Of a DNA stretch of 9,642 bases, positions 1-9,642 are shown piece by piece. Source of the stretch: an uncultured Synergistia bacterium (GTDB taxonomy: Bacteria > Eremiobacterota > SpSt-956 > JAKJGF01); contig CALARM010000517.1 in NCBI GenBank assembly GCA_937888925.1, positions 1-9,642 of the forward strand, written 5' to 3'. The notes beneath the pieces were generated by a model. The model was not told where the DNA came from, ran no database searches, and saw nothing but the letters and a program-made list of their open reading frames with translations. Numbering within the stretch: position 1 is the stretch's first letter; every line of letters begins with the position of its first letter. Both the position numbers and the translations under genes were made by a program.

Positions 1-45
1 AATTGTAGGCTCCAAATTGATAAGCCAGACTTCACCTCTAATCAT
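1..45 (-). CDS. mazF: MazF-like toxin, N-terminal fragment (runs off the window)
   Basis: Only the first 15 codons are in the window, reading MIRGEVWLINLEPTI. This is the characteristic opening of MazF/PemK mRNA interferases (I-R-G-E-V-W-L-x-N-L-x-P-T). The family cleaves mRNA as the toxin half of type II toxin-antitoxin modules. The ATG at 45-43 overlaps the end of the upstream antitoxin gene by 8 bases (stop codon at 40-38), the tight coupling typical of such pairs. No separate ribosome site is needed beyond the purine-rich GGAGAAGA just upstream, inside the antitoxin's last codons. The body of the toxin and its catalytic residues lie outside the window, so whether it is intact cannot be judged. 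Confidence 0.8.
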   Translation of the reverse strand, partial: MIRGEVWLINLEPTI

Positions 46-277
46 AGAAATCTTCTCCATCAAGAGCAGTAAATGCAGTTAATTCCTTATCTGTAGCATA
101 ATCTTTTAACATTACTCTGGCTGCTTCTGCTAATTTATTTTTTTTATCTTTCTGATTTTTTATTATGTCCGCCCTGCGAATATCTTCTCTAATCATATTT
201 AGAGTATCTTCAATAATTTTTAAACGTTCTTCATTTGTAAAGTTTTTAAGTTCCAGCAGAATTTCTTTTTGAGTCAT
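38..277 (-). CDS. Antitoxin of a MazEF-like module (79 aa)
   Basis: This small, highly charged and probably helical protein is encoded directly upstream of a MazF-like toxin start, and its gene overlaps that start. It ends in T-A-L-D-G-E-D-F-Y-D, an acidic tail of the kind that antitoxins use to wrap and block MazF. The middle is rich in Lys, Glu and Ile. I do not recognise a classic AbrB-type MazE domain, so I leave the symbol blank. The reading frame is open further upstream, but the start at 277 is chosen because a strong GGAGGAG (292-286) lies 8 bases before it and the upstream residues would fall inside the promoter and operator. Its proposed role is to neutralise the toxin and repress the pair's own promoter at 311-339. 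The assignment rests mainly on gene order and the toxin partner. Confidence 0.75.
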   Translation of the reverse strand: MTQKEILLELKNFTNEERLKIIEDTLNMIREDIRRADIIKNQKDKKNKLAEAARVMLKDYATDKELTAFTALDGEDFYD

Positions 278-310
278 TAAAATCACTCCTCCAGAGATTA
301 TTCTGATCAA

Positions 311-339
311 ATTATAACAGTTAAACTGTGATAAAGCAA
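311..339 (-). promoter_or_regulatory. Extended -10 promoter of the toxin-antitoxin pair
   Basis: On the minus strand a perfect TATAAT (316-311) is preceded by TGT, giving an extended -10 (TGnTATAAT). A weak -35, TTGCTT (339-334), sits at 17-base spacing. Transcription would start near 304, leaving a leader of about 27 bases with the GGAGGAG site well placed. The promoter overlaps the last codons of the preceding RadC-like gene as it now reads. It would be intergenic if that gene's stop were the inferred original one at 357-355. Confidence 0.6.
317..329. promoter_or_regulatory. Palindrome in the promoter spacer, candidate antitoxin operator
   Basis: ACAGTT-A-AACTGT is a perfect 6+1+6 inverted repeat lying directly against the -10 element, inside the -35/-10 spacer. 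A protein bound here would block RNA polymerase. Type II antitoxins commonly autoregulate through such sites. The palindrome is seen in the sequence; its use as an operator is inference. Confidence 0.45.
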
Positions 340-1157
340 AGATTTTTCTGATTTTTATTCTTCCAGTTCCCACAATGGTTATCTGCAATCAAATTAGTAG
401 GAAGAGCATATCCATCACCCAGGTCAGGAAACATAATAACCTTTCCTCCACTCCGACGTCCTGGAAGTAATAGAAGCACTCTGTCATCATCTGCAACCAT
501 TGTTCGAAGAAGTGTTAATTCCACATTATAAGCAAAAAGCATTTCTAAACTACCGAGTACTATAAGTCCTCTACCTTTAAGATTTGACCGCAAAAAGCTC
601 TCAAAAGCCCTTTCCACATGAGCGGCAGTAGGCTCAGGTCTTTTTGCTTCATTCTCCGCCAGTTCCCGAAATTCTGCATCAGGAATAGATGAAAGAATAC
701 CTTTATTAACTGACAGAGTTGAAGGAAAAGGTGTTCCATTGGGTGCTACGGTATCAGCTTCCGCTACGGAAACATCAAATAATCCTAATTGTTTTACTTT
801 ATCTTCCTTTATATCTATTTTCTCACTCTCTTTTACAACCTCTATTTCATTTTCTTTTACACTATGTTCTTTTACACCATGATGTATTCGAATCCAATCT
901 ACAAGTTTAAGTAATGTGGCAGAAGAAATTTTAATGCCGGAAATTTCACAGAGAGAAGAAACTTCTGCAGAAAGAACATCAGAAAGACTTCCAAACTTTT
1001 CCAGAAGACTTTTCGCCAGGGGTAAAACATCTTTCTGAGGAATAGAATAAGCCAGGAGTAACTCTAAAAGAGCTTCTTCTGTATGTGAACCTTCCCCGCC
1101 TTTTATAAATCTCTCCTTCAGCCTTTCACGATGGCCGGTTTTACTGTTTTTGTTCAT
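321..1157 (-). CDS. RadC N-terminal-domain protein with a BrxF-like C-terminal region; probable C-terminal frameshift (278 aa)
   Basis: Residues about 7-90 match the N-terminal domain of RadC/UPF0758 proteins: GHRERLKERF, then E-x-A-L-L-E-L-L-L, then IPQKDVLPLAKSLLEKFGSL, then a helix-hairpin-helix-like stretch (SLCEISGIKISSATLLKL, 68-85). The RadC JAB-like metalloprotease domain is absent. After a charged linker (about 95-150), residues about 176-262 form a compact alpha/beta region: GLIVLGSLEMLF, LLRTM, DRVLLLLPGRRSGGK, then LPTNLIADNH. From memory this pattern resembles the part of the BREX protein BrxF after its Walker A, but no Walker A is present here. The ATG at 1157 is chosen because GGGGA lies 7 bases upstream; a GTG at 1175 has no such site. 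The last 16 residues look out of frame. One extra T between 372 and 371 on the coding strand would give NHCWELEE and a stop at 357-355. Function is unknown; DNA binding is plausible. Confidence 0.65.
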   Translation of the reverse strand: MNKNSKTGHRERLKERFIKGGEGSHTEEALLELLLAYSIPQKDVLPLAKSLLEKFGSLSDVLSAEVSSLCEISGIKISSATLLKLVDWIRIHHGVKEHSVKENEIEVVKESEKIDIKEDKVKQLGLFDVSVAEADTVAPNGTPFPSTLSVNKGILSSIPDAEFRELAENEAKRPEPTAAHVERAFESFLRSNLKGRGLIVLGSLEMLFAYNVELTLLRTMVADDDRVLLLLPGRRSGGKVIMFPDLGDGYALPTNLIADNHCGNWKNKNQKNLCFITV

Positions 1158-1259
1158 TTTATATTCCCCGTTCACTTAATTTTTATTTTATTTCAGTCTA
1201 TTTTATCTATTATTCTGACCAATTTTTCAGTCAGTTTATTTCTTATTTTACTGATCAGT
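1158..1259. promoter_or_regulatory. AT-rich gap with repeated CTGA/TCAG motifs, possible regulatory region
   Basis: This 102-bp gap separates the integrase-SAM-like gene from the RadC-like gene. It contains the perfect 10-bp palindrome ACTGATCAGT (1250-1259), an inverted pair CTGAC/GTCAG (1215-1219 and 1230-1234) and a further CAGTC at 1194-1198. The recurring motif suggests a repressor site for the RadC-like gene. I find no convincing -35/-10 pair at normal spacing and no terminator with a T-run, so the role is open. Confidence 0.25.
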
Positions 1260-1958
1260 TTAATCCTTGACTTTACACCTTTTTTCATCTATCCATTTTG
1301 CTGCCTCTTTCAAGTCCATGTCATACAGGTCAACAGCTTCTTCTTCTGTCAGTTCAATCCTAAATTCTTTTTCAATTTCAGAAATTTGTTTTGTGTCACA
1401 AAGCGTGTCAGGCGGATTGCACGTTGACCACATGCAACACATTTGCTTTGAGTCTGGATTATGTTTGTATTTGCGTTGATATTTCTTGTATATATTGTAC
1501 AATTGCTGGTATGTACTTCTTGCTAAACAGAGAGTATGTCTGGTTGGCACAATAGCCGATCCGAATACCTTATGATTAACGATGCCTTTCTCTGTTGCAA
1601 GAAATATAAAGAATTTCTTCAGTGCGGTTTTGAGCTGATCTGGTGTAGTGGAGTCCCAGACCTTCCTCTTCCACCACTGCTTAAAATGGGTATTAACCAT
1701 TCCTTTAGTAATCTCCTCGATACTGTCGGCATCAGTCTGCCAGCAAATGAAATCAATAAATAGATCGATGATTGTTGAGTATTTACGAGCCGTCTTTTCA
1801 GAGTATTTCGCCAATAAATATTTATGGAATTCTTTATTGAGTTCTACCAGATGGCAACGGAATGGTTCTCTCTGTTTTTGAGCTTCTTCCATCAGTTTGA
1901 AGTATTCTCCTATTTTGTCCCCCGGAATCGCTACTTTGCCGGTGTACACTTTCGCCAT
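1260..1958 (-). CDS. Integrase SAM-like core-binding-domain protein without catalytic domain (232 aa)
   Basis: Residues about 41-126 have the four-helix SAM-like core-binding fold that tyrosine recombinases use to grip DNA: L-N-K-E-F-H-K-Y-L, then Y-S-E-K-T-A-R-K-Y, D-L-F-I-D-F, and LKTALKKFFIFLATEKGI. The following residues (about 130-232) lack the R...H-x-x-R...Y catalytic layout. Instead they hold a basic stretch (YKKYQRKYKH), a small cysteine cluster (Cys174, Cys175, Cys180, Cys187) and an acidic helical tail, so the protein cannot recombine DNA by the usual chemistry. It resembles a family of uncharacterised proteins I recall from Firmicutes. The start at 1958 is set by GGAG 8 bases upstream; an ATG eight codons earlier has no site. 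It has its own promoter at 1975-2002. A likely role is a DNA-binding accessory or regulator, but that is inference. Confidence 0.7.
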   Translation of the reverse strand: MAKVYTGKVAIPGDKIGEYFKLMEEAQKQREPFRCHLVELNKEFHKYLLAKYSEKTARKYSTIIDLFIDFICWQTDADSIEEITKGMVNTHFKQWWKRKVWDSTTPDQLKTALKKFFIFLATEKGIVNHKVFGSAIVPTRHTLCLARSTYQQLYNIYKKYQRKYKHNPDSKQMCCMWSTCNPPDTLCDTKQISEIEKEFRIELTEEEAVDLYDMDLKEAAKWIDEKRCKVKD

Positions 1959-1974
1959 ATTGATGACTCCTTTC

Positions 1975-2002
1975 ATTATCACCCTGTATACAACCCTGTC
2001 AA
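1975..2002 (-). promoter_or_regulatory. Strong sigma-70 promoter for the SAM-like gene
   Basis: A perfect TTGACA (2002-1997) is followed after 16 bases by GATAAT (1980-1975), five of six matches to the consensus -10. The -35 contains the TGA stop codon of the helicase gene (2001-1999), so the promoter begins exactly where the operon ends. The start point would fall around 1971-1968, leaving a very short leader with the ribosome site almost at the 5' end of the transcript. Confidence 0.6.
1981..1999. repeat. Two ACAGGGT direct repeats, 12 bp apart, inside the promoter
   Basis: On the minus strand ACAGGGT occurs at 1999-1993 and again at 1987-1981, one close to a helical turn apart (12-bp period). 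The first copy overlaps the -35 and the second abuts the -10. The spacing suits a dimeric regulator binding one DNA face, for example the SAM-like protein itself. This could also be chance. Confidence 0.35.
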
Positions 2003-4074
2003 TCTTTCGTTTCAGAAAGAATTAAACAGACTTCTCTAACTGTTTTATCAATATTTTCATCCCATAAAGACTCTTTTATTGCTAAAATCTCAGTCTCAGG
2101 ATTTAACCAGCTTTTCACTTCTTCACATCTTATATCATGAGGAAGTTTTGAATTTAAAACAGGCCTGCAGAGTTTACCTTCAAACCAGGAAATCTCCCTG
2201 TTTATATAAAATTCAAAACTGGAGATTTTAATGTCCTTAAGCCAGTCAGGCTTTTTATTACTTATTTGTGACAGAGCAAAATAAAATTGATTTGAACAGA
2301 CTGGCCTGTTATCACTCCGGGACATTCTTGCCAGCCCTTCTATGACAATCTGCCGTATTTCACCACCGAGATGAAATATATAAATCCTGTCTGACTTTCT
2401 TACAACAGGCCATATATTATCACCAATACCAAGATATTTCCTTATAGCATATGCCTGAGAAGAATTTTTAAGTATTCTTTCGGAAGCATAATTCCATTCC
2501 CCTTTAACAAGATTTTCATCCTTTACCTTCTTAACTTCAATATTATAATCTTTAAAATTTTTTATTTGAAGCAGTTCTCCCCCTGTTTTCAAACCTTTAC
2601 CCTGAACATATGTAATATCTGTAGCAATTTTCTCGCCGTTCTGTTCATCAATAACATTATAACCGTAAGAAAAATCTATGTTAGAATGAATTTTACCGTA
2701 TTCAGTCCTGTCCTGCCAGTAATCACCAGGCCTGAGACCTTCTTCATTTTCGATTAAATCTTCATATTCTATCATTCTGTCAAGAATAGATTTAGCTTTA
2801 TCAGGTGAAATATTACTTTTGAGGAAATCTTCAATGGTCACTCTTTTTCTGGTACGGACCGGAGATTGAAAAATATAGGAAGCAATCTGCTGAAAAATAA
2901 CAGAATAATTACTTCCTCCGTTATATGGAGTTTCGTAACAATCCTTTAAACCTTCTATCATTGCTTCAAGTATCATTGAGTCAGACATAGTATCGGCACA
3001 GGTTATTACCCTAATCTGGCCGGTTCTTCTGTTCCCTCTGCCAAGTCTCTGCAAAAGTGCTGCCATATCGGGAGGAGGGCCGTCGAGGACTACTAAATCA
3101 ATATCTCCTATGTCTATTCCAAGTTCAAGAGTGGATGTGGCAAAAGCTACAATTCTCTCTTTATTTTTTACAGCTTCTTCCCCGTCTTCTCTGACCCTTT
3201 TACTCAAACTTCCATGATGGGCCACAACATGATATTTAAATTTATTCAATTTTTCTCTCATGTAAGAGGCCAGAATATCAACTCTTTTCCTGGAATTGGA
3301 AAAAACAAGTATTTTTTCCGAATTTGCAGGATTTTTTTTTATATATTTAAAAAGTGCCTTATGAACAGGTTCCATAACATCATTGAGACGTGTAATTTCT
3401 CTCTTTTCTTCAGATGAGATATATTCTCCATGACCCATAAAAGAACTTATTACCTTTTCAGTTTCAGAAACAGTAGCACTCAGACCGATAATTTGAAGAT
3501 CATTTCCAGGAATATGACGGATTGAAGATACATATCTCTTCAATCTTCTGAGTCTTTCTATGAGCCATCTCACCTGTTCCCCTCTCTGTGTGCCGTAAAG
3601 AAAATGAATTTCATCCAGAACAACGGCTTTAACAGAGGCAAGAACATGTATGTACGTTCTATGTCTCCCGCGGCACATGATACTGTCAAAGGATTCAGGT
3701 GTTGTTATAAGGACATGAGGGATTCTGTAAGATCGTGACGAATGTTCTCCTGTTTTCCTTACCAGTCTTAAATCAAGTGATGAAAGGGGACTGTAGAGAC
3801 GTTCATAAAGATCATTGACAAGAGCCCTTGTAGGGCAGATATAAAGAATTGTCCACGGTGTATTTATATCAATATTTCTTTCTACAAGAGGAGCACAGAC
3901 TGCTTCTGTTTTTCCTGTGGCAGTCGAAGAAGAAATAAGGAGATTTTGCCCCTGAAGTATAACAGGTATGGCCTTTCTCTGAATATCCGTTAATCTTCCA
4001 TGAATTTCAAAGAATACAGGCCATGTCCTGGGAAGTTTTTTTGCTATTTCTCTATCTATCTTCAGTTTATTCAT
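1999..4074 (-). CDS. Lhr-like superfamily 2 DEAD/DEAH helicase (691 aa)
   Basis: All main helicase motifs are present in order: Q-type region TDIQRKAI (29-36), Walker A SSTATGKT (49-56), PTRAL (81-85), TTPES (124-128), Walker B DEIH (154-157), SAT (199-201), ILVFSNSRKR (255-264), ATSTLELGIDIG (312-323) and motif VI QRLGRGNRR (342-350). The QRxGRxxRR form is typical of Lhr-type ATP-driven 3'-5' translocases. After the core comes a winged-helix-like segment (about 395-455), then a beta-rich C-terminal part with IYIFHLGGEIRQIVIEGL (564-581), which recalls the DEAD/H-associated domain of Lhr. BREX type 2 loci carry an Lhr-like helicase, BrxHI. The ATG at 4074 is preferred to one at 4131, because it shares a base with the upstream stop (TGATG) and so is translationally coupled, while 4131 has no ribosome site. 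The gene is intact and is the last of the operon. Confidence 0.9.
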   Translation of the reverse strand: MNKLKIDREIAKKLPRTWPVFFEIHGRLTDIQRKAIPVILQGQNLLISSSTATGKTEAVCAPLVERNIDINTPWTILYICPTRALVNDLYERLYSPLSSLDLRLVRKTGEHSSRSYRIPHVLITTPESFDSIMCRGRHRTYIHVLASVKAVVLDEIHFLYGTQRGEQVRWLIERLRRLKRYVSSIRHIPGNDLQIIGLSATVSETEKVISSFMGHGEYISSEEKREITRLNDVMEPVHKALFKYIKKNPANSEKILVFSNSRKRVDILASYMREKLNKFKYHVVAHHGSLSKRVREDGEEAVKNKERIVAFATSTLELGIDIGDIDLVVLDGPPPDMAALLQRLGRGNRRTGQIRVITCADTMSDSMILEAMIEGLKDCYETPYNGGSNYSVIFQQIASYIFQSPVRTRKRVTIEDFLKSNISPDKAKSILDRMIEYEDLIENEEGLRPGDYWQDRTEYGKIHSNIDFSYGYNVIDEQNGEKIATDITYVQGKGLKTGGELLQIKNFKDYNIEVKKVKDENLVKGEWNYASERILKNSSQAYAIRKYLGIGDNIWPVVRKSDRIYIFHLGGEIRQIVIEGLARMSRSDNRPVCSNQFYFALSQISNKKPDWLKDIKISSFEFYINREISWFEGKLCRPVLNSKLPHDIRCEEVKSWLNPETEILAIKESLWDENIDKTVREVCLILSETKD

Positions 4075-5420
4075 CAGGGAAGCTGTTCTTTCGGAGGCCC
4101 GTAATTCACATCCAGAAGGCTTATATACCATTTTATAAAGGAACGTATTAATCCACTGTCATTGTTCTCAATTTTTCCTGCAAGCAACTCCTCAACTTCA
4201 GATGTAAGTTTACGGTTAAACACATTTTCCAGAGAATAGGCATCACAGTATATTGAATGTATCTTTTCAGCCAGCTTAACCCTCTGAGTTCTGTTAAAGA
4301 CTTTCAATCTGTATCTGCTGCTTTTATCAGAAGCTATATATTTTTCAATCAAAGGATCTCCTTCATTACCATACTGATCTACTACGGCAAAAAAGATGCC
4401 CAGCGGGGCATTGAAACATCCTGTCTTTCCTTTTAAATAATCCTGAAGTGCTCCAAGGGTTTCTTCTATTTTTACGAGTTTTCTTTTGTATAAATATTCA
4501 ATCTCGAACTCATCCATAGTAATAATAAGACCTCTGTAACCTGCAAGTCTGGAAAGAGCGGCATGACCTGCCAGAGCCTGAACAAAATCATAAGGTCTAT
4601 CAGAAACCTTTGAGCCAATCATTTTTTCAATTATTATATCTTTTTTATCTATATTATTTTCTTTTATCATTCCCCTTACCTGTGCAGGAGTATATTCATT
4701 ACCTGAAGAAATGACAGAAGATATTAAAGAGGCATATTTATCAAGATGTCCTGTCCTGATAAGGGTATGAATAAGGAGCATATTGTTTTTTATCTTATCT
4801 TTACCTTCAGTTATGATACTTGAAGGAATAGTATCATTTTTCAGGGCTTTTTTGTAAAGATCTATTAAAGGTTCCTGAAAATCTATATCATTTTCCGAAA
4901 GAGAAGCCCATATACTGTTGAGAAGCATTCCATGATTGGATAGACTCAGAGTATGTCCGTCAAGTTCAACCCTTGCAGTTAAAAAACCTTTTTTTCTTGC
5001 TATATATCTCACAAGAGAAAGGGTATGGCTTTTTCCTGTACCATAGGGGCCACTCACCTGAAAACCACAGGGCATATCATGGAGACATTTTGAAAGACCT
5101 TTTTCCACCCAGTTACTTAATTCTTCAAAACCAAGAGTCAATTCTTCAATATTTTCTTCAGGAACAAGGCCGAATCTTAAAGCTTCTATAGTGTTAGTTT
5201 TTTTACTCCTTGAGAGTTTATTTCTATCTCCGGGAGAAGTTACTCTATCCGAAGAAAGAGACATTTCTTCAAGAGGCTTCATTTCTGAAAGAGCTACTTC
5301 AATTTCAAGATTTTTCAGGCAAAAAACAGAAACAAGGGCACTGTTTCCGCTTACTTTTACAATTTTCCCATGACCTAACCTGTTAATGTCAACTGTCATA
5401 TTGGGCAAAAAATTTAACAT
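4074..5420 (-). CDS. BrxC/BrxD-like P-loop ATPase 3, with an N-terminal SH3-like segment (448 aa)
   Basis: The Walker A is GPYGTGKS (124-131) and the Walker B is LIITMDEFE (298-306, acidic pair 303-304). The layout matches the BREX BrxC/BrxD (DUF2791) ATPases: an N-terminal lead-in, then a long helical insert between the Walker motifs. It is the most diverged of the three ATPases here and lacks the LSVDK signature of the other two. Its own extra piece is the first 50 or so residues, with NRLGHGKIVKVSGNSALVSV (13-32), which read like a small beta-barrel (SH3/KOW-like) as found at the front of nucleic-acid motors. A basic linker follows (about 66-76). The start at 5420 is supported by AGGAG 8 bases upstream. 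The stop shares a base with the helicase start, so helicase and ATPase 3 are probably made together and may bind each other. I infer that this subunit is the link between ATPase assembly and helicase. Confidence 0.8.
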   Translation of the reverse strand: MLNFLPNMTVDINRLGHGKIVKVSGNSALVSVFCLKNLEIEVALSEMKPLEEMSLSSDRVTSPGDRNKLSRSKKTNTIEALRFGLVPEENIEELTLGFEELSNWVEKGLSKCLHDMPCGFQVSGPYGTGKSHTLSLVRYIARKKGFLTARVELDGHTLSLSNHGMLLNSIWASLSENDIDFQEPLIDLYKKALKNDTIPSSIITEGKDKIKNNMLLIHTLIRTGHLDKYASLISSVISSGNEYTPAQVRGMIKENNIDKKDIIIEKMIGSKVSDRPYDFVQALAGHAALSRLAGYRGLIITMDEFEIEYLYKRKLVKIEETLGALQDYLKGKTGCFNAPLGIFFAVVDQYGNEGDPLIEKYIASDKSSRYRLKVFNRTQRVKLAEKIHSIYCDAYSLENVFNRKLTSEVEELLAGKIENNDSGLIRSFIKWYISLLDVNYGPPKEQLP

Positions 5421-5471
5421 ACAAATTTCTCCTGGAAATTATATTTATAGTAACAGCTCATATTTATAATC

Positions 5472-5501
5472 GTGATGCGTGACGCGTGATGCGTGATGCG
5501 T
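5472..5501. repeat. Heptamer tandem array GTGATGC, 4.3 copies
   Basis: Four seven-base units (GTGATGC, GTGACGC, GTGATGC, GTGATGC) plus GT run without gaps on the plus strand. One unit differs by a single base. The array lies 51 bp upstream of the ATPase 3 start, in the only sizeable gap inside the operon. Such heptamer arrays occur as intergenic repeats in several bacterial phyla. Confidence 0.85.
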
Positions 5502-5511
5502 ATTTAATCCC

Positions 5512-5533
5512 GGGGCGTTTAGTTAAACGCCCC
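5512..5533. repeat. Perfect GC-rich hairpin between the two heptamer arrays
   Basis: GGGGCGTTTA and TAAACGCCCC form a perfect 10-bp inverted repeat around a 2-base centre (GT). Extended by GTAGGGGCG-type ends, it recalls dispersed REP-like palindromes. In the operon transcript it would fold strongly, but no T-run follows on the minus strand (the next bases are GGGATTAAAT). It is therefore not a standard intrinsic terminator. It could instead slow or protect the transcript between the ATPase 2 and ATPase 3 genes. Confidence 0.8.
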
Positions 5534-5537
5534 TACC

Positions 5538-5578
5538 TCACTTTTCACTTTTCACTTTTCACTTTTCACTTTTCACTA
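5538..5578. repeat. Heptamer tandem array TCACTTT, five perfect copies plus a partial
   Basis: TCACTTT repeats five times without error (5538-5572), followed by TCACTA. Read on the minus strand the unit is AAAGTGA. It carries GTGA every seven bases, the same spacing and core as the GTGATGC array on the other side of the hairpin but in inverted orientation. It ends 22 bp from the ATPase 2 stop codon. Replication slippage would make its copy number variable. Confidence 0.85.
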
Positions 5579-5599
5579 CTCACAGATTTGGCGAAGAAA

Positions 5600-6832
5600 T
5601 CAAACTTCCGGTTCATCAAAAGAATCTTCTTTAAATAATTCAGGTTTTACAAGTTTTCCTGTTTCAAACAGTTCAAGTAACATTGAACATGTTGCTTTAA
5701 CCATTTCCCTTCTGCTGCTTCCTGAAATATTTTCTTCAACTATAGATATGGCAATTTCATTAATCTCTTTATAAACTTCTTCTTTTCTGATACTTATTTG
5801 CTCTCCGAGTAGTTCATAAAAAACATCTGCAAGTTTATTGCCTATACGTCTTATGTCTTCAAGAGGATTATCACTCCATAGTTCAATTAAAGGAGCAAGG
5901 GTATTTCCATCAAAAAATCCCCTCCCTCTGGGACTCATAATCCTCTGCTGAAGAGCAGCAAAATTTTTCATTTTATCTACAAGGTCCGGTGTAAGAGCAT
6001 AAACAACAAGGGCTGAACCTTCCTGGAGATTTGTAATTGACTCAATACCTGACATTAACATTGAAAGTATCTTATCAGTTTTCTTTTTATCCACAGAAAG
6101 ACCCTGTTCCGCTTCATCAAAACAGACAAGACTCCCCTGAAAACCGGCATGTCTTATAAACTGAAAAAGTGACATCATCAATCTTTTTGCATAGAGATTA
6201 TTTGAACTTTTATCAATTTGAGCTATTCCAAGCTCTCCTGAAAGTCTCCTGTCATTTATATCTCCTTCAATCCACCGGCAACACATGTCCAGAATTACAT
6301 CGTCTTCTTCAACTATGGCCATAAGAGCTTTCTTTATTACCTTGCCGAACATATCAAGTTTAAAACCTTTTTTATCAATCCCGGAAATCCATCCGTTTAC
6401 AAAAAGTTCTTCAATATATTTATTTTCAGAACAGGATTTCACTTTTTCAAGAGAAGCAGAGAGAAAATGTTTTATTCCCCTTTCCCGTGAAAAAGGAACA
6501 CGGAGTTCACGTATAACTTCACTGTAGACAATAATACTTCTGGAAAAATCTATATCTTTATTCAATACAACTTCAGATGTTACACAGTTCCTGTCTCTGG
6601 CAATTTCCATTAATTGTCTGAGGAAATGGGTTTTACCTGAGCCGAAAGGGCCTATGACAAACTTCTCCGATGATGTACCCCTGGTGAATTGTTCGTTTAA
6701 ATATTTATGCTCTATCCTTGCAAAGGCATCTTCATAGCCAACGCCGAATATACTGCAACCTTCGTCGGGAGCAGAACCAAAAGAAGCCATACGTTCAACC
6801 ATGGTAATAAAAGTATCTTTTGAAATATCCAT
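5600..6832 (-). CDS. BrxC/BrxD-like P-loop ATPase 2 (410 aa)
   Basis: The opening ERMASFGSAP (14-22) and VGYEDAFARI (31-40) match the lead-in of ATPase 1. The Walker A is GPFGSGKT (61-68), followed by H-F-L. The Walker B is SLVCFDEAEQ (234-243, acidic pair 239-240) and runs straight into LSVDKK, shared with ATPase 1. Then come VVYALTPDLV (277-286) and a FAALQQRI box (291-298), which fit the sensor region and conserved A-L-x-x-R of BREX BrxD-type ATPases (DUF2791). Length is normal for the family. No membrane segment or signal is seen, so it should be cytoplasmic. The start at 6832 is chosen over an ATG ten codons earlier. It lies one base past the ATPase 1 stop, and GGAGAGGG is placed just before it. 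It presumably forms mixed assemblies with the two neighbouring ATPases. Confidence 0.85.
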   Translation of the reverse strand: MDISKDTFITMVERMASFGSAPDEGCSIFGVGYEDAFARIEHKYLNEQFTRGTSSEKFVIGPFGSGKTHFLRQLMEIARDRNCVTSEVVLNKDIDFSRSIIVYSEVIRELRVPFSRERGIKHFLSASLEKVKSCSENKYIEELFVNGWISGIDKKGFKLDMFGKVIKKALMAIVEEDDVILDMCCRWIEGDINDRRLSGELGIAQIDKSSNNLYAKRLMMSLFQFIRHAGFQGSLVCFDEAEQGLSVDKKKTDKILSMLMSGIESITNLQEGSALVVYALTPDLVDKMKNFAALQQRIMSPRGRGFFDGNTLAPLIELWSDNPLEDIRRIGNKLADVFYELLGEQISIRKEEVYKEINEIAISIVEENISGSSRREMVKATCSMLLELFETGKLVKPELFKEDSFDEPEV

Positions 6833-6833
6833 G

Positions 6834-7991
6834 TTATCCCTCTCCAAGACTCTGCAGTGCAATATTAGACAGAGTCTTCATTAAAATTCTCTTATAACCT
6901 GAACCGGCATTATCCAATAATACTGACTGTCCGCTTTCTTTCATTAAACTGCAAATACCATTGTTTTTACCGCCAAGTTTTTCTACAATAGATACATATT
7001 TATTTATGGAATGTTCAAGAAAATCTTCTTCTTCTGTAATTTCGTTCAGGAAATCAACAGGAAGAACAGGCCATCGCCATGAAGGTCTGTACGTTTCATC
7101 TCTGAATATCTGTAACCTCTGTCCCAGTGCCTGATAGCTCATAGAACAATTTTCCAGAAAACCGGGCAGTACGGCAAATACTGATACAGTGCCGGCCATT
7201 AATCCATTTACACAGCCGTCAATCATTCTTCTCATAAGATTGGCTGCAATATTATTTTTTCTGGAAGGACCTCTTTTATCTACGGAAAGAGTCTTCTCAT
7301 TTTCATCAAAGAGAAGTATTGTTCCATTAAATCCAAGACAATAAAGACCATGAAGAACTGTTTTTAACACATATTCTGCATTACGTCGATTAAGGCAGTT
7401 TTTAATTGTACCAAGTCCATGTTTTTTGAGATCTGAATTACTTACCTTTCTCCCTGAAAGATATTCCTCAATAAAAGGCCATAATTCCGGGGAAATCTTA
7501 TCTTTCTGTGTGGCGTAAATCATAGCATATTTAAAACCGGGACAGGGCAGATTTTCTTTTTTTAATATATCTATATGAGAAGTAATATTCTTTCTTCCCC
7601 ATAAAGCAAGTATTTCAGGAAGAGAACGTACTATCTGACCATCTATAAGGGCTTCCATATTTTGAAATATATATTCTGTAATAAGTCTCCAGTCAGACAG
7701 GCTTAAAGCCTGAGAAAGATTGGTATTTGCCACTACAAGATTCTTTTTAAAAGCCAGTTCTCTTAACATTTCCAGAATATGGGTTTTCCCCGAACCATAG
7801 GCACCTTCAAAGAATTTACATGTTGCTCCTCCTTTTGAGATTAAATCATCAATGATTTCTTTCTCGAAATATTTTAAATATCTCTCTGTACCGACATCTA
7901 CTAAATGACTGGTTCCAGAAGGAGCAGTGCCAAAAGTGGCAATATGTTCAAGAGCGTTTTTAAGGAGTATGTTACCGTTATTATGCCACAT
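6834..7991 (-). CDS. BrxC/BrxD-like P-loop ATPase 1 (385 aa)
   Basis: The lead-in HIATFGTAP (16-24) and VDVGTERYLKYF (31-42) are followed by the Walker A GAYGSGKT (63-70) with H-I-L-E-M-L after it. The Walker B is TILLFDENEK (224-233, acidic pair 229-230) and continues into LSVDKRGPSRKNN (235-247). A sensor-like strand, VSVFAVLPGF (269-278), and the box YQALGQRLQIF (286-296) complete the DUF2791/BrxD pattern. This is the clearest of the three ATPases. In BREX loci these proteins hydrolyse ATP and are needed for defence, with a mechanism still poorly defined. The ATG at 7991 overlaps the upstream stop by one base (TAATG). A GAGAGG lies 12 bases upstream, slightly far, so coupling to the upstream gene probably matters. 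The stop is one base before the ATPase 2 start. Confidence 0.87.
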   Translation of the reverse strand: MWHNNGNILLKNALEHIATFGTAPSGTSHLVDVGTERYLKYFEKEIIDDLISKGGATCKFFEGAYGSGKTHILEMLRELAFKKNLVVANTNLSQALSLSDWRLITEYIFQNMEALIDGQIVRSLPEILALWGRKNITSHIDILKKENLPCPGFKYAMIYATQKDKISPELWPFIEEYLSGRKVSNSDLKKHGLGTIKNCLNRRNAEYVLKTVLHGLYCLGFNGTILLFDENEKTLSVDKRGPSRKNNIAANLMRRMIDGCVNGLMAGTVSVFAVLPGFLENCSMSYQALGQRLQIFRDETYRPSWRWPVLPVDFLNEITEEEDFLEHSINKYVSIVEKLGGKNNGICSLMKESGQSVLLDNAGSGYKRILMKTLSNIALQSLGEG

Positions 7992-9073
7992 TATTTACCG
8001 GAGCCTCTCTTAACAGGAATAACATAACACATAACTTTATATTCGTCACAGGGGTTTAATCCGTTTACAACAAAACCTTTATTCTGAGATGCTTCCTGCA
8101 TGCTTCCTGTCTGAAGTCCAAGTCTCTTATTATCAGGAACTTTTAAACCAAGAGAACGATATATATCCAGATTATAAAGGAAAGCCCAGATGGGAAATTT
8201 ATGATATTTATCTATTCTGGCTGTCAAACCTTTATTTGCAAGCAAATTGCGAATAAGAGCTATACGGACTTCTCTGTAAAAATCAAATACAGGAACAAGA
8301 GAAGAAGTTCCTTTTCCTGATAGATGATTCTTTGCCTCTTTAAAAGCATCAAAAAATACTTCCGCAATATCCTGTTCCGGTATTAAATGACTATCAAGCA
8401 TAAGATTTGCCCTGTTTTCAAGATCAACAAAATCTTCTTTACTTTTAACAGATGTCCAGTTTATCAATGTCTGTTCATTATAAAGTATTTTGATTTTAGA
8501 TAATCCCGGCCTTACTTTGATCATAAGTCTCCCTGTACGCCATCCGTTACTGTATTCCCTTACAGGTCTGTTTTCTGCGTGGAGACTTTTTATATATTCA
8601 GCTTCATGTCTTTTAAAGGACTCTGCACGTACAGTTTTTGCGAGTTCAATAAATTCTTTTGCCTTACTTACTTCTCTGTCCATATCTATAGCCAGATTAT
8701 TTGAAGAAGGAACAGCTTTTATCAATTTTTCCAGACGTTCAAGACAATCAATTTTATCCGCTCTTAAATCTTTAAGGGCAGATACAAATCTAAAAAGGTC
8801 TTTTAATGATTTTATTACGTCAGTCATCTGTTTTTTTTCATCAAAAACATCTGATTTTTCAACGATATCTTTATTATTTTCATCTGTAATAACCTGTTCA
8901 TCCGAAGGCCTGTATTCAACATCAGTAATATCTTCATCTGAAGTAGTGTATTCAATATCAGTAATATCTTCATCTGAAATATTTTTTTCATTTAAATGTC
9001 CATTAGAAGAAACATTATCAGTAATATCTTGCTCTATAAACTCTTTTTTATTTAAACCGGTATTTTCTTCCAT
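7991..9073 (-). CDS. Acidic-headed protein of unknown function, first gene of the ATPase-helicase operon (360 aa)
   Basis: I do not recognise a named family. Residues 1-80 are very acidic and of low complexity, with a 12-residue repeat: SDEDITDIEYTT (33-44), SDEDITDVEYRP (45-56), then SDEQVITDEN. This part is probably disordered. Residues about 85-165 are helical and charged, possibly coiled coil (FRFVSALKDLRADKIDCLERLEKLIKA region). The rest looks folded: a strand-rich patch with GWRTGRLMIKVRPG (177-190), helices (about 216-285), and a conserved-looking end (KFPIWAFLYNLDIYRSLGL, 292-310) with a basic tail KRGSGK. AGAGG five bases before the ATG supports the start. Being first, behind the promoter, and overlapping ATPase 1, it is likely a dedicated partner, perhaps a target-sensing or scaffold subunit. 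The acidic head could mimic DNA or block ATPase or helicase activity at rest; that is speculation. Confidence 0.75.
   Translation of the reverse strand: MEENTGLNKKEFIEQDITDNVSSNGHLNEKNISDEDITDIEYTTSDEDITDVEYRPSDEQVITDENNKDIVEKSDVFDEKKQMTDVIKSLKDLFRFVSALKDLRADKIDCLERLEKLIKAVPSSNNLAIDMDREVSKAKEFIELAKTVRAESFKRHEAEYIKSLHAENRPVREYSNGWRTGRLMIKVRPGLSKIKILYNEQTLINWTSVKSKEDFVDLENRANLMLDSHLIPEQDIAEVFFDAFKEAKNHLSGKGTSSLVPVFDFYREVRIALIRNLLANKGLTARIDKYHKFPIWAFLYNLDIYRSLGLKVPDNKRLGLQTGSMQEASQNKGFVVNGLNPCDEYKVMCYVIPVKRGSGK
8921..8978. repeat. Internal direct repeat, 36-bp period, in the acidic gene
   Basis: Two identical 22-bp copies begin at 8921 and 8957, encoding the D-E-D-I-T-D units. A shorter related copy starts at 9017 (first 14 bases the same). 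Near-identity at the DNA level, including third codon positions, points to recent duplication rather than old protein-level conservation. Confidence 0.8.
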
Positions 9074-9196: not shown

Positions 9197-9642
9197 TTAA
9201 CAACACTCAATGCCAAACCTTCCGTTAAATTCCTCTATAACATGTAAAAACTCAATATTCAGTCTCTTTCTTGTATTCTTAATTATCTCCTTCGGGATTT
9301 CCCCGTAAAAAGCCTGTGCAATAGCTCCGGCAATACATGCAATAGTATCACTGTCTCCTCCCAGAGAAACAGCTTTCCTTACAGCATCTTCAAAATCCTC
9401 AGATTCAAGAAACGCTATAATGGCTTCAGGAACAGAACCCTGACAGGTCACATCAAATTTATAGTGAGGTCTTATTTCGTCTAAAGTCCTTTCCAGATTA
9501 TATCCGAAATATTCCTGAATATATTCTTTAATCTCCTTTTTACTTCTTCCCTGCCTGGCAAAAAATACAGCAGATGCCGCAGCCTGAGCTCCTTTTATAC
9601 CTTCACGATGATTGTGTGACACTTCTGCACTTTTTTTTGCTT
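9197..9642 (-). CDS. ADP-ribosylglycohydrolase (DraG family), C-terminal part; 5' end outside the window
   Basis: The visible 148 codons include VSHNHREGIKGAQA near the edge and SLGGDSDTIACIAGAIAQAF further on, the two best-known signatures of the ADP-ribosylglycohydrolase family. The aspartates of GGDSDT bind the two magnesium ions that hydrolyse ADP-ribose from modified proteins or nucleic acids. Family members are usually about 250-330 residues, so about half is missing upstream. The frame is open to the window edge: a GTG at 9622 is not a likely start, because it encodes the V of the conserved VSHNH motif and the frame continues before it (A-K-K-S-A-E). The gene is co-oriented with the operon but separated by 123 bp and a promoter. 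Such hydrolases often reverse ADP-ribosyltransferase signalling, and some sit in defence islands. A role with the ATPase operon is unproven. Confidence 0.93.
   Translation of the reverse strand, partial: AKKSAEVSHNHREGIKGAQAAASAVFFARQGRSKKEIKEYIQEYFGYNLERTLDEIRPHYKFDVTCQGSVPEAIIAFLESEDFEDAVRKAVSLGGDSDTIACIAGAIAQAFYGEIPKEIIKNTRKRLNIEFLHVIEEFNGRFGIECC

What the first reader, a model, noticed from the sequence alone, without database searches (positions are those of the whole stretch)
1999..9073. Candidate undescribed system: acidic protein, three BREX-type ATPases and an Lhr-like helicase in one operon
Five co-directional genes are joined by one-base overlaps or a one-base gap, except for one 179-bp repeat-filled gap, and all read through intact. 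Three consecutive genes carry BrxC/BrxD-like P-loop ATPase signatures and the last is an SF2 helicase close to Lhr/BrxHI. BREX loci pair such ATPases and helicases with PglZ, PglX and BrxL or similar; none of those is here. From memory, TerB-linked DNA-processing clusters also join this ATPase type to helicases, but I see no TerB domain. The operon appears complete between its promoter and the next gene's promoter, so it may be a self-contained defence or DNA-processing module.
Basis: partly seen in the sequence, partly recalled or inferred. Interest (0 to 1): 0.85.

Follow-up and report, generated by a model that had tools for sequence, protein, structure and literature searches.

The report
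Three-ATPase helicase operon, likely phage defence
Five adjacent bacterial genes, kept together in the same order in very different bacteria, appear to build a DNA machine in which three related but differently equipped ATPase motors and a partner protein control a helicase; it resembles parts of known anti-phage systems but looks like a distinct variant whose function is still untested.

Summary
Five minus-strand genes (7991-9073, 6834-7991, 5600-6832, 4074-5420, 1999-4074) encode a family-less 360-aa protein, three BrxC/BrxD-type AAA+ ATPases and an SF2 helicase. All five recur in the same order in 10 of the 11 other genomes where I found a full or nearly full-length first gene (Clostridia, Syntrophomonas, Paenibacillus, apparently Caldicellulosiruptor); in the eleventh they are broken and on two contigs. 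One relative has lost most of gene 1 through gene 5 between kept neighbours.

It is not BREX (no PglZ, PglX, BrxC or BrxL found) nor Shango (no TerB/SngA; three ATPases, not one). Closest are unnamed operons with two such ATPases. Each of the three ATPases is its own clade. All keep Walker A/B, but an arginine at the presumed arginine-finger position is invariant in ATPases 1 and 2 and not conserved in ATPase 3.

Best reading: adaptor plus an asymmetric, ORC-like ATPase assembly load or gate the helicase on invading DNA. Defence is inferred from neighbours, patchiness, exchange between species and nuclease-fused sister forms; it is untested, and a DNA-repair role remains possible. New variant of a known kind.

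The parts
7991..9073 (-). A360: first gene, 360 aa. Acidic disordered tail (1-74), helical/coiled-coil region, five strands plus helix, C-terminal winged-helix-like domain. Presumed adaptor
   Evidence: ORF; no Pfam/PADLOC/NCBIfam family; AF2 model, 197 of 360 residues at pLDDT 90 or more, low confidence in 1-74; 38 homologues including itself
8897..8978 (-). 36-bp tandem repeat (2.3 copies) coding for a repeated acidic motif of the tail
   Evidence: the extension is seen only in P0001-P0003
6834..7991 (-). ATP1: BrxC/BrxD-type (ORC/Cdc6-like) AAA+ ATPase, 385 aa; Walker A/B and ALxxR arginine present
   Evidence: PF10923 E 1e-22; motifs
5600..6832 (-). ATP2: BrxC/BrxD-type AAA+ ATPase, 410 aa from ATG 6832; Walker A/B and ALxxR arginine present
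   Evidence: PF10923 E 3e-31; profile matches ORC4 E 2e-4; motifs
5421..5599 (.). 179-bp repeat-filled gap with a 10-bp hairpin, peculiar to this copy of the operon
   Evidence: relatives have at most 6 bases or an overlap here
4074..5420 (-). ATP3: BrxC/BrxD-type AAA+ ATPase, 448 aa, with an N-terminal extension; Walker A/B intact, no arginine at the ALxxR position
   Evidence: PF10923 E 6e-21; motifs
1999..4074 (-). HEL: SF2 helicase, 691 aa from ATG 4074 (DEIH box), Lhr/BrxHI/SngC-like
   Evidence: DEAD + Helicase_C; PADLOC BrxHI E 3e-68, SngC E 4e-67; profile of 9 relatives hits Brr2, Lhr and MrfA in PDB

Best explanation
A self-contained five-gene DNA-processing module, most likely an anti-phage or anti-mobile-element system, working like an origin-recognition/helicase-loader machine. 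Shown: five genes in fixed order; three separate ATPase lineages, all with intact Walker motifs; a conserved arginine at the presumed arginine-finger position in ATP1 and ATP2, not conserved in ATP3; an Lhr/BrxHI-like SF2 helicase; a first protein predicted to end in a winged-helix-like domain. Inferred: the three ATPases form one asymmetric hetero-oligomer in which ATP1 and ATP2 complete a neighbour's ATP site and ATP3 sits at the finger-less end or gap. A360, through its coiled coil and winged helix, bridges this assembly to DNA and senses or marks the target. ATP binding and hydrolysis load or unlock HEL, whose translocation blocks replication or exposes the invading DNA to host nucleases, since the family scans recognised no nuclease in the operon.
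For: Fixed membership: complete operons in L001-L006 and L008, L069, L089 and L090 besides the window. Reverse test: ATP3 above 500 bits in 4 of 63 and 2 of 291 genomes, the same genomes that hold full-length A360; next-best score 78.6 bits. A relative (L068) lacks about 6.4 kb, from inside A360 to just after HEL, while both sides stay collinear with L004 at 79-88% identity. Three ATPase clades, each 100/100, and the arginine present in 11 of 11 ATP1, 12 of 12 ATP2, 14 of 14 'first' and 6 of 6 single ATPases. In form E the 'first' ATPase has lost Walker A and the Walker B glutamate in 3 of 3 aligned rows but keeps the arginine, while the 'second' keeps Walker A/B: a composite-site signature. 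The form E helicase carries SNF2 plus an Mrr nuclease in 3 of 3 proteins checked. Defence-family neighbours at E < 1e-40 (a threshold set after seeing the hits) in 4 of 9 genomes whose flanks I scanned with PADLOC (G005-G008). Between two apparent Caldicellulosiruptor genomes the operon has dS 0.03-0.16 against 1.3-2.6 for flgK, flgL, sigF and fliC, which fits recent exchange.
Confidence: 0.52

Rival explanations
1. A genome-maintenance (DNA repair or replication-restart) module of the Lhr kind: the ORC-like ATPases load an Lhr-type helicase at the cell's own damaged forks, and defence-island residence is incidental.
For: Same site in the flagellar region of two Caldicellulosiruptor genomes and the first gene in at least five named members of that family; Brr2/Ski2-type and Lhr helicases are the best solved matches; purifying selection, dN/dS 0.15-0.33 (L089/L090) and 0.09-0.18 (L004/L006).
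Against: Patchy elsewhere: matches in 5 of 63 genomes of one class (one a fragment) and 3 of 291 of another (one marginal); module loss; recent exchange between species; nuclease-fused sister forms.
Confidence: 0.25
2. A divergent member of Shango: A360 is a replaced SngA, and the single SngB has been multiplied.
For: PADLOC SngB and SngC profiles match ATP1-3 and HEL (E 8e-14, 1e-17, 9e-9 and 4e-67); same order adaptor - ATPase(s) - helicase in a Shango-like locus (its first protein matches SngA at E 3e-49).
Against: No TerB/SngA match in A360; three ATPases; HEL and ATP1-3 fall outside the BrxHI/SngC group (100/100) and the single-ATPase BrxD/SngB group (98/94) (3 and 6 known-type rows only).
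Confidence: 0.12
3. A piece of a BREX locus cut off by the window edge.
For: BrxC_BrxD and BrxHI profile matches; one relative (G007) has PglX, PglZ and BrxL on the same contigs as its broken copy.
Against: No PglZ/PglX/BrxC/BrxL assignment among the window ORFs tested, and none as best hit among the flank proteins tested in the eight complete relatives scanned with PADLOC (the L005 SNF2 protein scores DrmD first, BrxHII third). The single-ATPase rows form their own clade.
Confidence: 0.03
4. A motility- or phase-linked regulatory module, as suggested by its place next to csrA and flagellin in Caldicellulosiruptor.
For: Position in L089 and L090.
Against: I recognised no flagellar neighbours by eye in the other nine relatives' maps, and dS shows that the operon was exchanged independently of most flagellar genes.
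Confidence: 0.03

Closest known systems
Unnamed two-ATPase operons (forms B, C, E here; no PADLOC match to the form B first protein)
   Same: Small first protein, BrxC/D-type ATPases in tandem, then a helicase (L018, L019, L059; L051-L053; L063, L065-L067). The form B first protein has the same order of elements in its C-terminal half as A360. HELs of form B and the window group together (100/100); ATP3 groups with three form B second ATPases (95/88).
   Different: Two ATPases, not three. First proteins align only distantly or not significantly with A360, and their N-terminal helices are arranged differently. Forms C and E have giant SF2-SF1 or SNF2-Mrr helicases.
Shango (SngA TerB, SngB ATPase, SngC helicase)
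   Same: Adaptor-like first gene, BrxC/D-type ATPase, BrxHI-like helicase; experimentally anti-phage (PMC10250203, passages read).
   Different: TerB protein absent, three ATPases instead of one, helicase in another clade.
BREX type 2 BrxD-BrxHI dyad
   Same: BrxD is an ORC/Cdc6 AAA+ ATPase that may load or activate BrxHI (PMC12839542, passages read).
   Different: BREX core genes absent, three ATPases, extra adaptor.
Eukaryotic ORC/Cdc6 helicase loader
   Same: Hetero-oligomer of related AAA+ subunits with unequal active sites (recalled); ATP2 profile matches ORC4 (E 2e-4).
   Different: Target helicase is an SF2 translocase, not MCM; membership in an origin-licensing pathway is not claimed.

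Membership tests
BREX | PglZ, PglX, BrxC (about 1200 aa), BrxL or BrxHI/BrxD with the core | tested here: not met
   No such assignment in the window ORFs tested other than BrxD- and BrxHI-like hits; BrxC profiles match the ATPases only weakly (E 0.0035 or worse)
Shango | SngA with TerB domain as first gene | tested here: not met
   A360 has no PADLOC match and no TerB in Pfam; none among the 25 families shown of 45 weak ones for 27 members; the SngA profile works on a Shango-like locus (E 3e-49)
Shango | one SngB-type ATPase | tested here: not met
   Three ATPases, each scoring far lower to SngB than a SngB-like protein does (32.8-62.3 against 582.9 bits)
Shango | SngC-type helicase | tested here: inconclusive
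   SngC profile E 4e-67, but the tree separates the window-type HELs from SngC plus BrxHI (one SngC and two BrxHI rows only)
BrxC/BrxD-type (ORC/Cdc6-like) AAA+ ATPases | PF10923 match above cut-off with Walker A and B | tested here: met
   Walker A lysine and Walker B DE in 35 of 35 ATP1-3 rows
BrxC/BrxD-type (ORC/Cdc6-like) AAA+ ATPases | arginine finger | tested here: inconclusive
   ALxxR by position only: ATP1 11 of 11, ATP2 12 of 12; ATP3 has an R in 2 of 12, without the AL; no structure or mutant
Lhr/BrxHI-like SF2 helicases | SF2 core motifs and Lhr-type similarity | tested here: met
   (Lhr 5v9x E 2e-34); the Lhr-type C-terminal domain itself was not shown
Anti-phage defence system | protection from phage | not testable with these tools
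   needs plating assays

The most novel reading that the evidence does not exclude
These operons belong to an undescribed superfamily of bacterial immune machines built like origin-recognition complexes: an adaptor with a winged helix, one to three non-equivalent ORC-like ATPases that share composite ATP sites, and an exchangeable helicase or helicase-nuclease effector. The window's form is the most elaborate seen, with three ATPases. Shango and the BREX-2 BrxD-BrxHI pair would be its simplest relatives.
Probability: 0.4. Interest if true: 0.82.

Novelty: new variant of a known kind. Interest (0 to 1): 0.66.

Why it matters
BrxD/BrxHI and Shango belong to defence systems, but how such an ATPase works with its helicase is left open in the passages I read. 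A series with one, two and three ATPases, in which one lineage has kept the presumed finger but lost its own ATP site, makes the question directly testable: which subunit hydrolyses, which supplies the arginine, and whether the assembly loads the helicase. If confirmed it would be a bacterial immune analogue of a heteromeric helicase loader.

Tried and rejected
Sequence families: A360 has no Pfam match better than E 0.13 and no PADLOC or NCBIfam match; weak Pfam hits across 27 relatives are scattered and look like chance. PDB by sequence: nothing convincing.

Homology of A360 with the form B first protein: direct profile comparison is not significant. Only the route through form C gives a signal: E 0.0038 at 8.8% hhalign probability, score 29 against at most 20 in six column-reversed controls; A-HMM median 13.4 bits on form C against at most 2.0 bits on reversed form C sequences, but on form B no better than on reversed ones (best 10.4 against 8.8). 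I treat it as probable distant homology, not proof.

First ATPase tree: two rows (L022, L024) were wrong ORFs picked by length. I replaced them and added the Caldicellulosiruptor rows; only one search is used for claims. The tree and motif counts take 14 ATPase pairs; pairs in L056, L058, L061 and L066 were left out. Of the six single rows, only L020 was itself matched to SngB by PADLOC; the BrxD labels rest on neighbours or on PF10923.

Motif regexes missed several Walker A variants; the aligned columns replace them.

Collections: no relative of A360 in viral contigs, plasmids or phages; no ATP3 match in plasmids. The marginal 20.5-bit match in G060 has none of the partner genes within the 3.2 kb around it and was dropped as chance.

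Literature: the searches listed no paper whose title, abstract start or read passages describe a three-ATPase form. Only open-licence PMC papers are held, and of papers I saw listings, one outline and passages, no whole text.
Full report
WHAT IS THERE. Five genes read on the minus strand of 1999-9073, with junctions of -1, +1, +179 and -1 bases. A360 (360 aa) has no family. ATP1, ATP2 and ATP3 match PF10923 (BrxC_BrxD), and HEL matches DEAD plus Helicase_C. PADLOC gives BrxD and SngB for the ATPases and BrxHI and SngC for the helicase as best hits, nothing for A360. NCBIfam gives only matches below its cut-offs.

IT IS A UNIT. A360 has 38 homologues, itself included, in a database of 5.8 billion proteins. 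In genome contigs, 8 loci were found: 7 have the five genes complete and in order. The eighth genome (G007) holds a broken first gene beside PglX-PglZ-BrxL and, on a second contig, an ATP1 piece, then ATP2, ATP3 and a helicase cut by the contig end, with a PglX part upstream. Further genomes came from sampling: class of G002, 3 of 291 matched, one marginal; class of G005, 5 of 63, one a fragment; phylum of G007, 1 of 297; phylum of G002, 4 of 398; the samples overlap. Of 11 genomes with a full or nearly full-length first gene (G001-G008, G029, G846, G955), 10 hold the complete operon. In the reverse direction the ATP3 profile scores above 500 bits in 4 of 63 and 2 of 291 genomes, exactly those with full-length A360; the next-best score is 78.6 bits.

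NATURAL LOSS. Genome G309 carries a 129-aa piece of A360 and no ATP3 match. Against L004 the two sides are collinear at 79-88% identity, and about 6.4 kb is missing, from inside A360 to just after HEL. The missing stretch is almost exactly the module.

THREE ATPASES WITH DIFFERENT EQUIPMENT. In a 69-row tree ATP1 (11 rows), ATP2 (12) and ATP3 (12) are each one clade at 100/100. Six single ATPases of BrxD/SngB type form a fourth (98/94). ATP3 joins three form B second ATPases (95/88). Walker A lysine and Walker B DE are present in all 35 ATP1-3 rows. At the position between sensor-1 and strand 5, where the arginine finger is expected, the arginine of ALxxR is present in ATP1 11/11, ATP2 12/12, first ATPases of pairs 14/14 and singles 6/6. 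It is not conserved in ATP3 (R in 2/12, without AL) or second ATPases (R in 3/14). In form E the first ATPase has lost Walker A and the Walker B glutamate in 3/3 aligned rows but keeps the arginine, and its partner keeps both Walker motifs. This is what one expects of composite sites in which one subunit binds ATP and another supplies the finger. That the residue is the finger is an inference from position; [quoted passage not shown]

THE HELICASE. The HEL profile matches Brr2 (1e-38), Lhr (2e-34) and MrfA/YprA (4e-27) in PDB. In a 16-row tree the nine five-gene helicases and four two-ATPase-form helicases stand together against two BrxHI and one SngC (100/100). A published helicase tree places SngC, BrxHI, DruE and DpdJ in one potentially distinct immune SF2 clade (PMC12278908, passages read).

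RELATED FORMS. PF10923 matches occur in 37 of 198 sampled genomes of the phylum of G007, 28 above cut-off; in 17 of these 28, by my count of the listed places, two ATPase frames lie side by side. I fetched 20 regions, 18 of them from this sample. Form B: 279-aa protein, two ATPases, helicase of about 700 aa (L018, L019, L059; L060 similar). Form C: 278-284-aa protein, two ATPases, giant protein of 1960-2034 aa (two completed) with SF2 and SF1 helicase parts and, in one of two, a sub-threshold Cas4-like stretch. Form D: two ATPases without a recognised helicase next door. Form E: 265-270-aa protein, two ATPases, a protein of about 188 aa, and SNF2 plus Mrr nuclease (3 of the 4 loci checked, all 3 positive).

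DEFENCE OR NOT. For: in 4 of the 9 genomes whose flanks I scanned, at least one chosen flank protein has a defence-family match below 1e-40 (G005 DrmD-like; G006 HEC-05, PDC-M57 and RT-NERD-helicase models; G007 BREX; G008 type I methyltransferase and a type II helicase model). Flank proteins were a selection, not all, and the threshold was set after seeing the hits. Controls: of 10 ORFs from unrelated flanks, 0 below 1e-40 but 3 below 1e-5. Distribution is patchy and the module can be lost. Two apparent Caldicellulosiruptor genomes carry it at the same site between csrA and flagellin, yet its dS is 0.03-0.16 against 2.60 (flgK), 1.57 (flgL), 1.26 (sigF), 1.48 (fliC), 0.55 (csrA) and 0.22 (fliW): a tract centred on the operon seems to have been exchanged recently (flgK, fliW, csrA and flagellin by Pfam, flgL and sigF named by eye; the largest dS values are near saturation). 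Against: that site is not a recognisable defence island, at least five named members of the family have the first gene, and 5 of 9 scanned genomes show no strong defence neighbour. dN/dS of 0.15-0.33 and 0.09-0.18 shows that the proteins are under constraint.

CONCLUSION. A real, conserved five-gene variant, not described in anything I found, in the neighbourhood of Shango and BREX-2 ATPase-helicase pairs, most likely a helicase-loading or helicase-gating DNA machine with a defence role. The mechanism is inferred; the phylogeny, gene content and motif pattern are shown.

Noticed in passing
window 321-1175, minus strand: ORF with a RadC-type N-terminus (UPF0758_N, E 3e-8) fused to an unidentified C-terminal half; plasmid matches cover only the first third.
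   Followed up: partly
window 1260-1982, minus strand: 240-aa protein with a phage-integrase SAM-like N-terminal domain only and GC3 0.42 against 0.21-0.28 in the seven other window genes compared, so perhaps a recent arrival.
   Followed up: partly
window 1-282, minus strand: Small ORF followed by the start of what looks, from memory, like a MazF/PemK-type toxin gene cut by the window end.
   Followed up: no
window 9197-9640, minus strand: C-terminal part of an ADP-ribosylglycohydrolase upstream of the operon (E 3e-19).
   Followed up: no
window 5421-5599: Two kinds of 7-bp tandem repeat and a perfect 10-bp hairpin between ATP2 and ATP3; an 18-base piece of the first repeat has no exact copy in the 92 loci fetched.
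   Followed up: partly
L063, L065, L066, L067: Form E operons: ATPase pair whose first member has lost its Walker motifs (3 of the 4 loci aligned), plus SNF2 with Mrr nuclease (3 of the 4 checked); looks like a separate restriction-type system.
   Followed up: partly
L051-L053: Form C operons with a giant SF2-SF1 helicase protein; 406 homologues of the first protein, and among the 120 listed many named ones are from cable bacteria (Electrothrix).
   Followed up: partly
L054, L055, L056, L057, L058: Form D: a pair of BrxC/D-type ATPases with no recognised helicase adjacent, several among what look like ordinary genes; may be a non-defence branch.
   Followed up: no
L089 and L090: In Caldicellulosiruptor the site between csrA and flagellin carries the operon, and dS drops sharply around it, suggesting recombination there.
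   Followed up: partly
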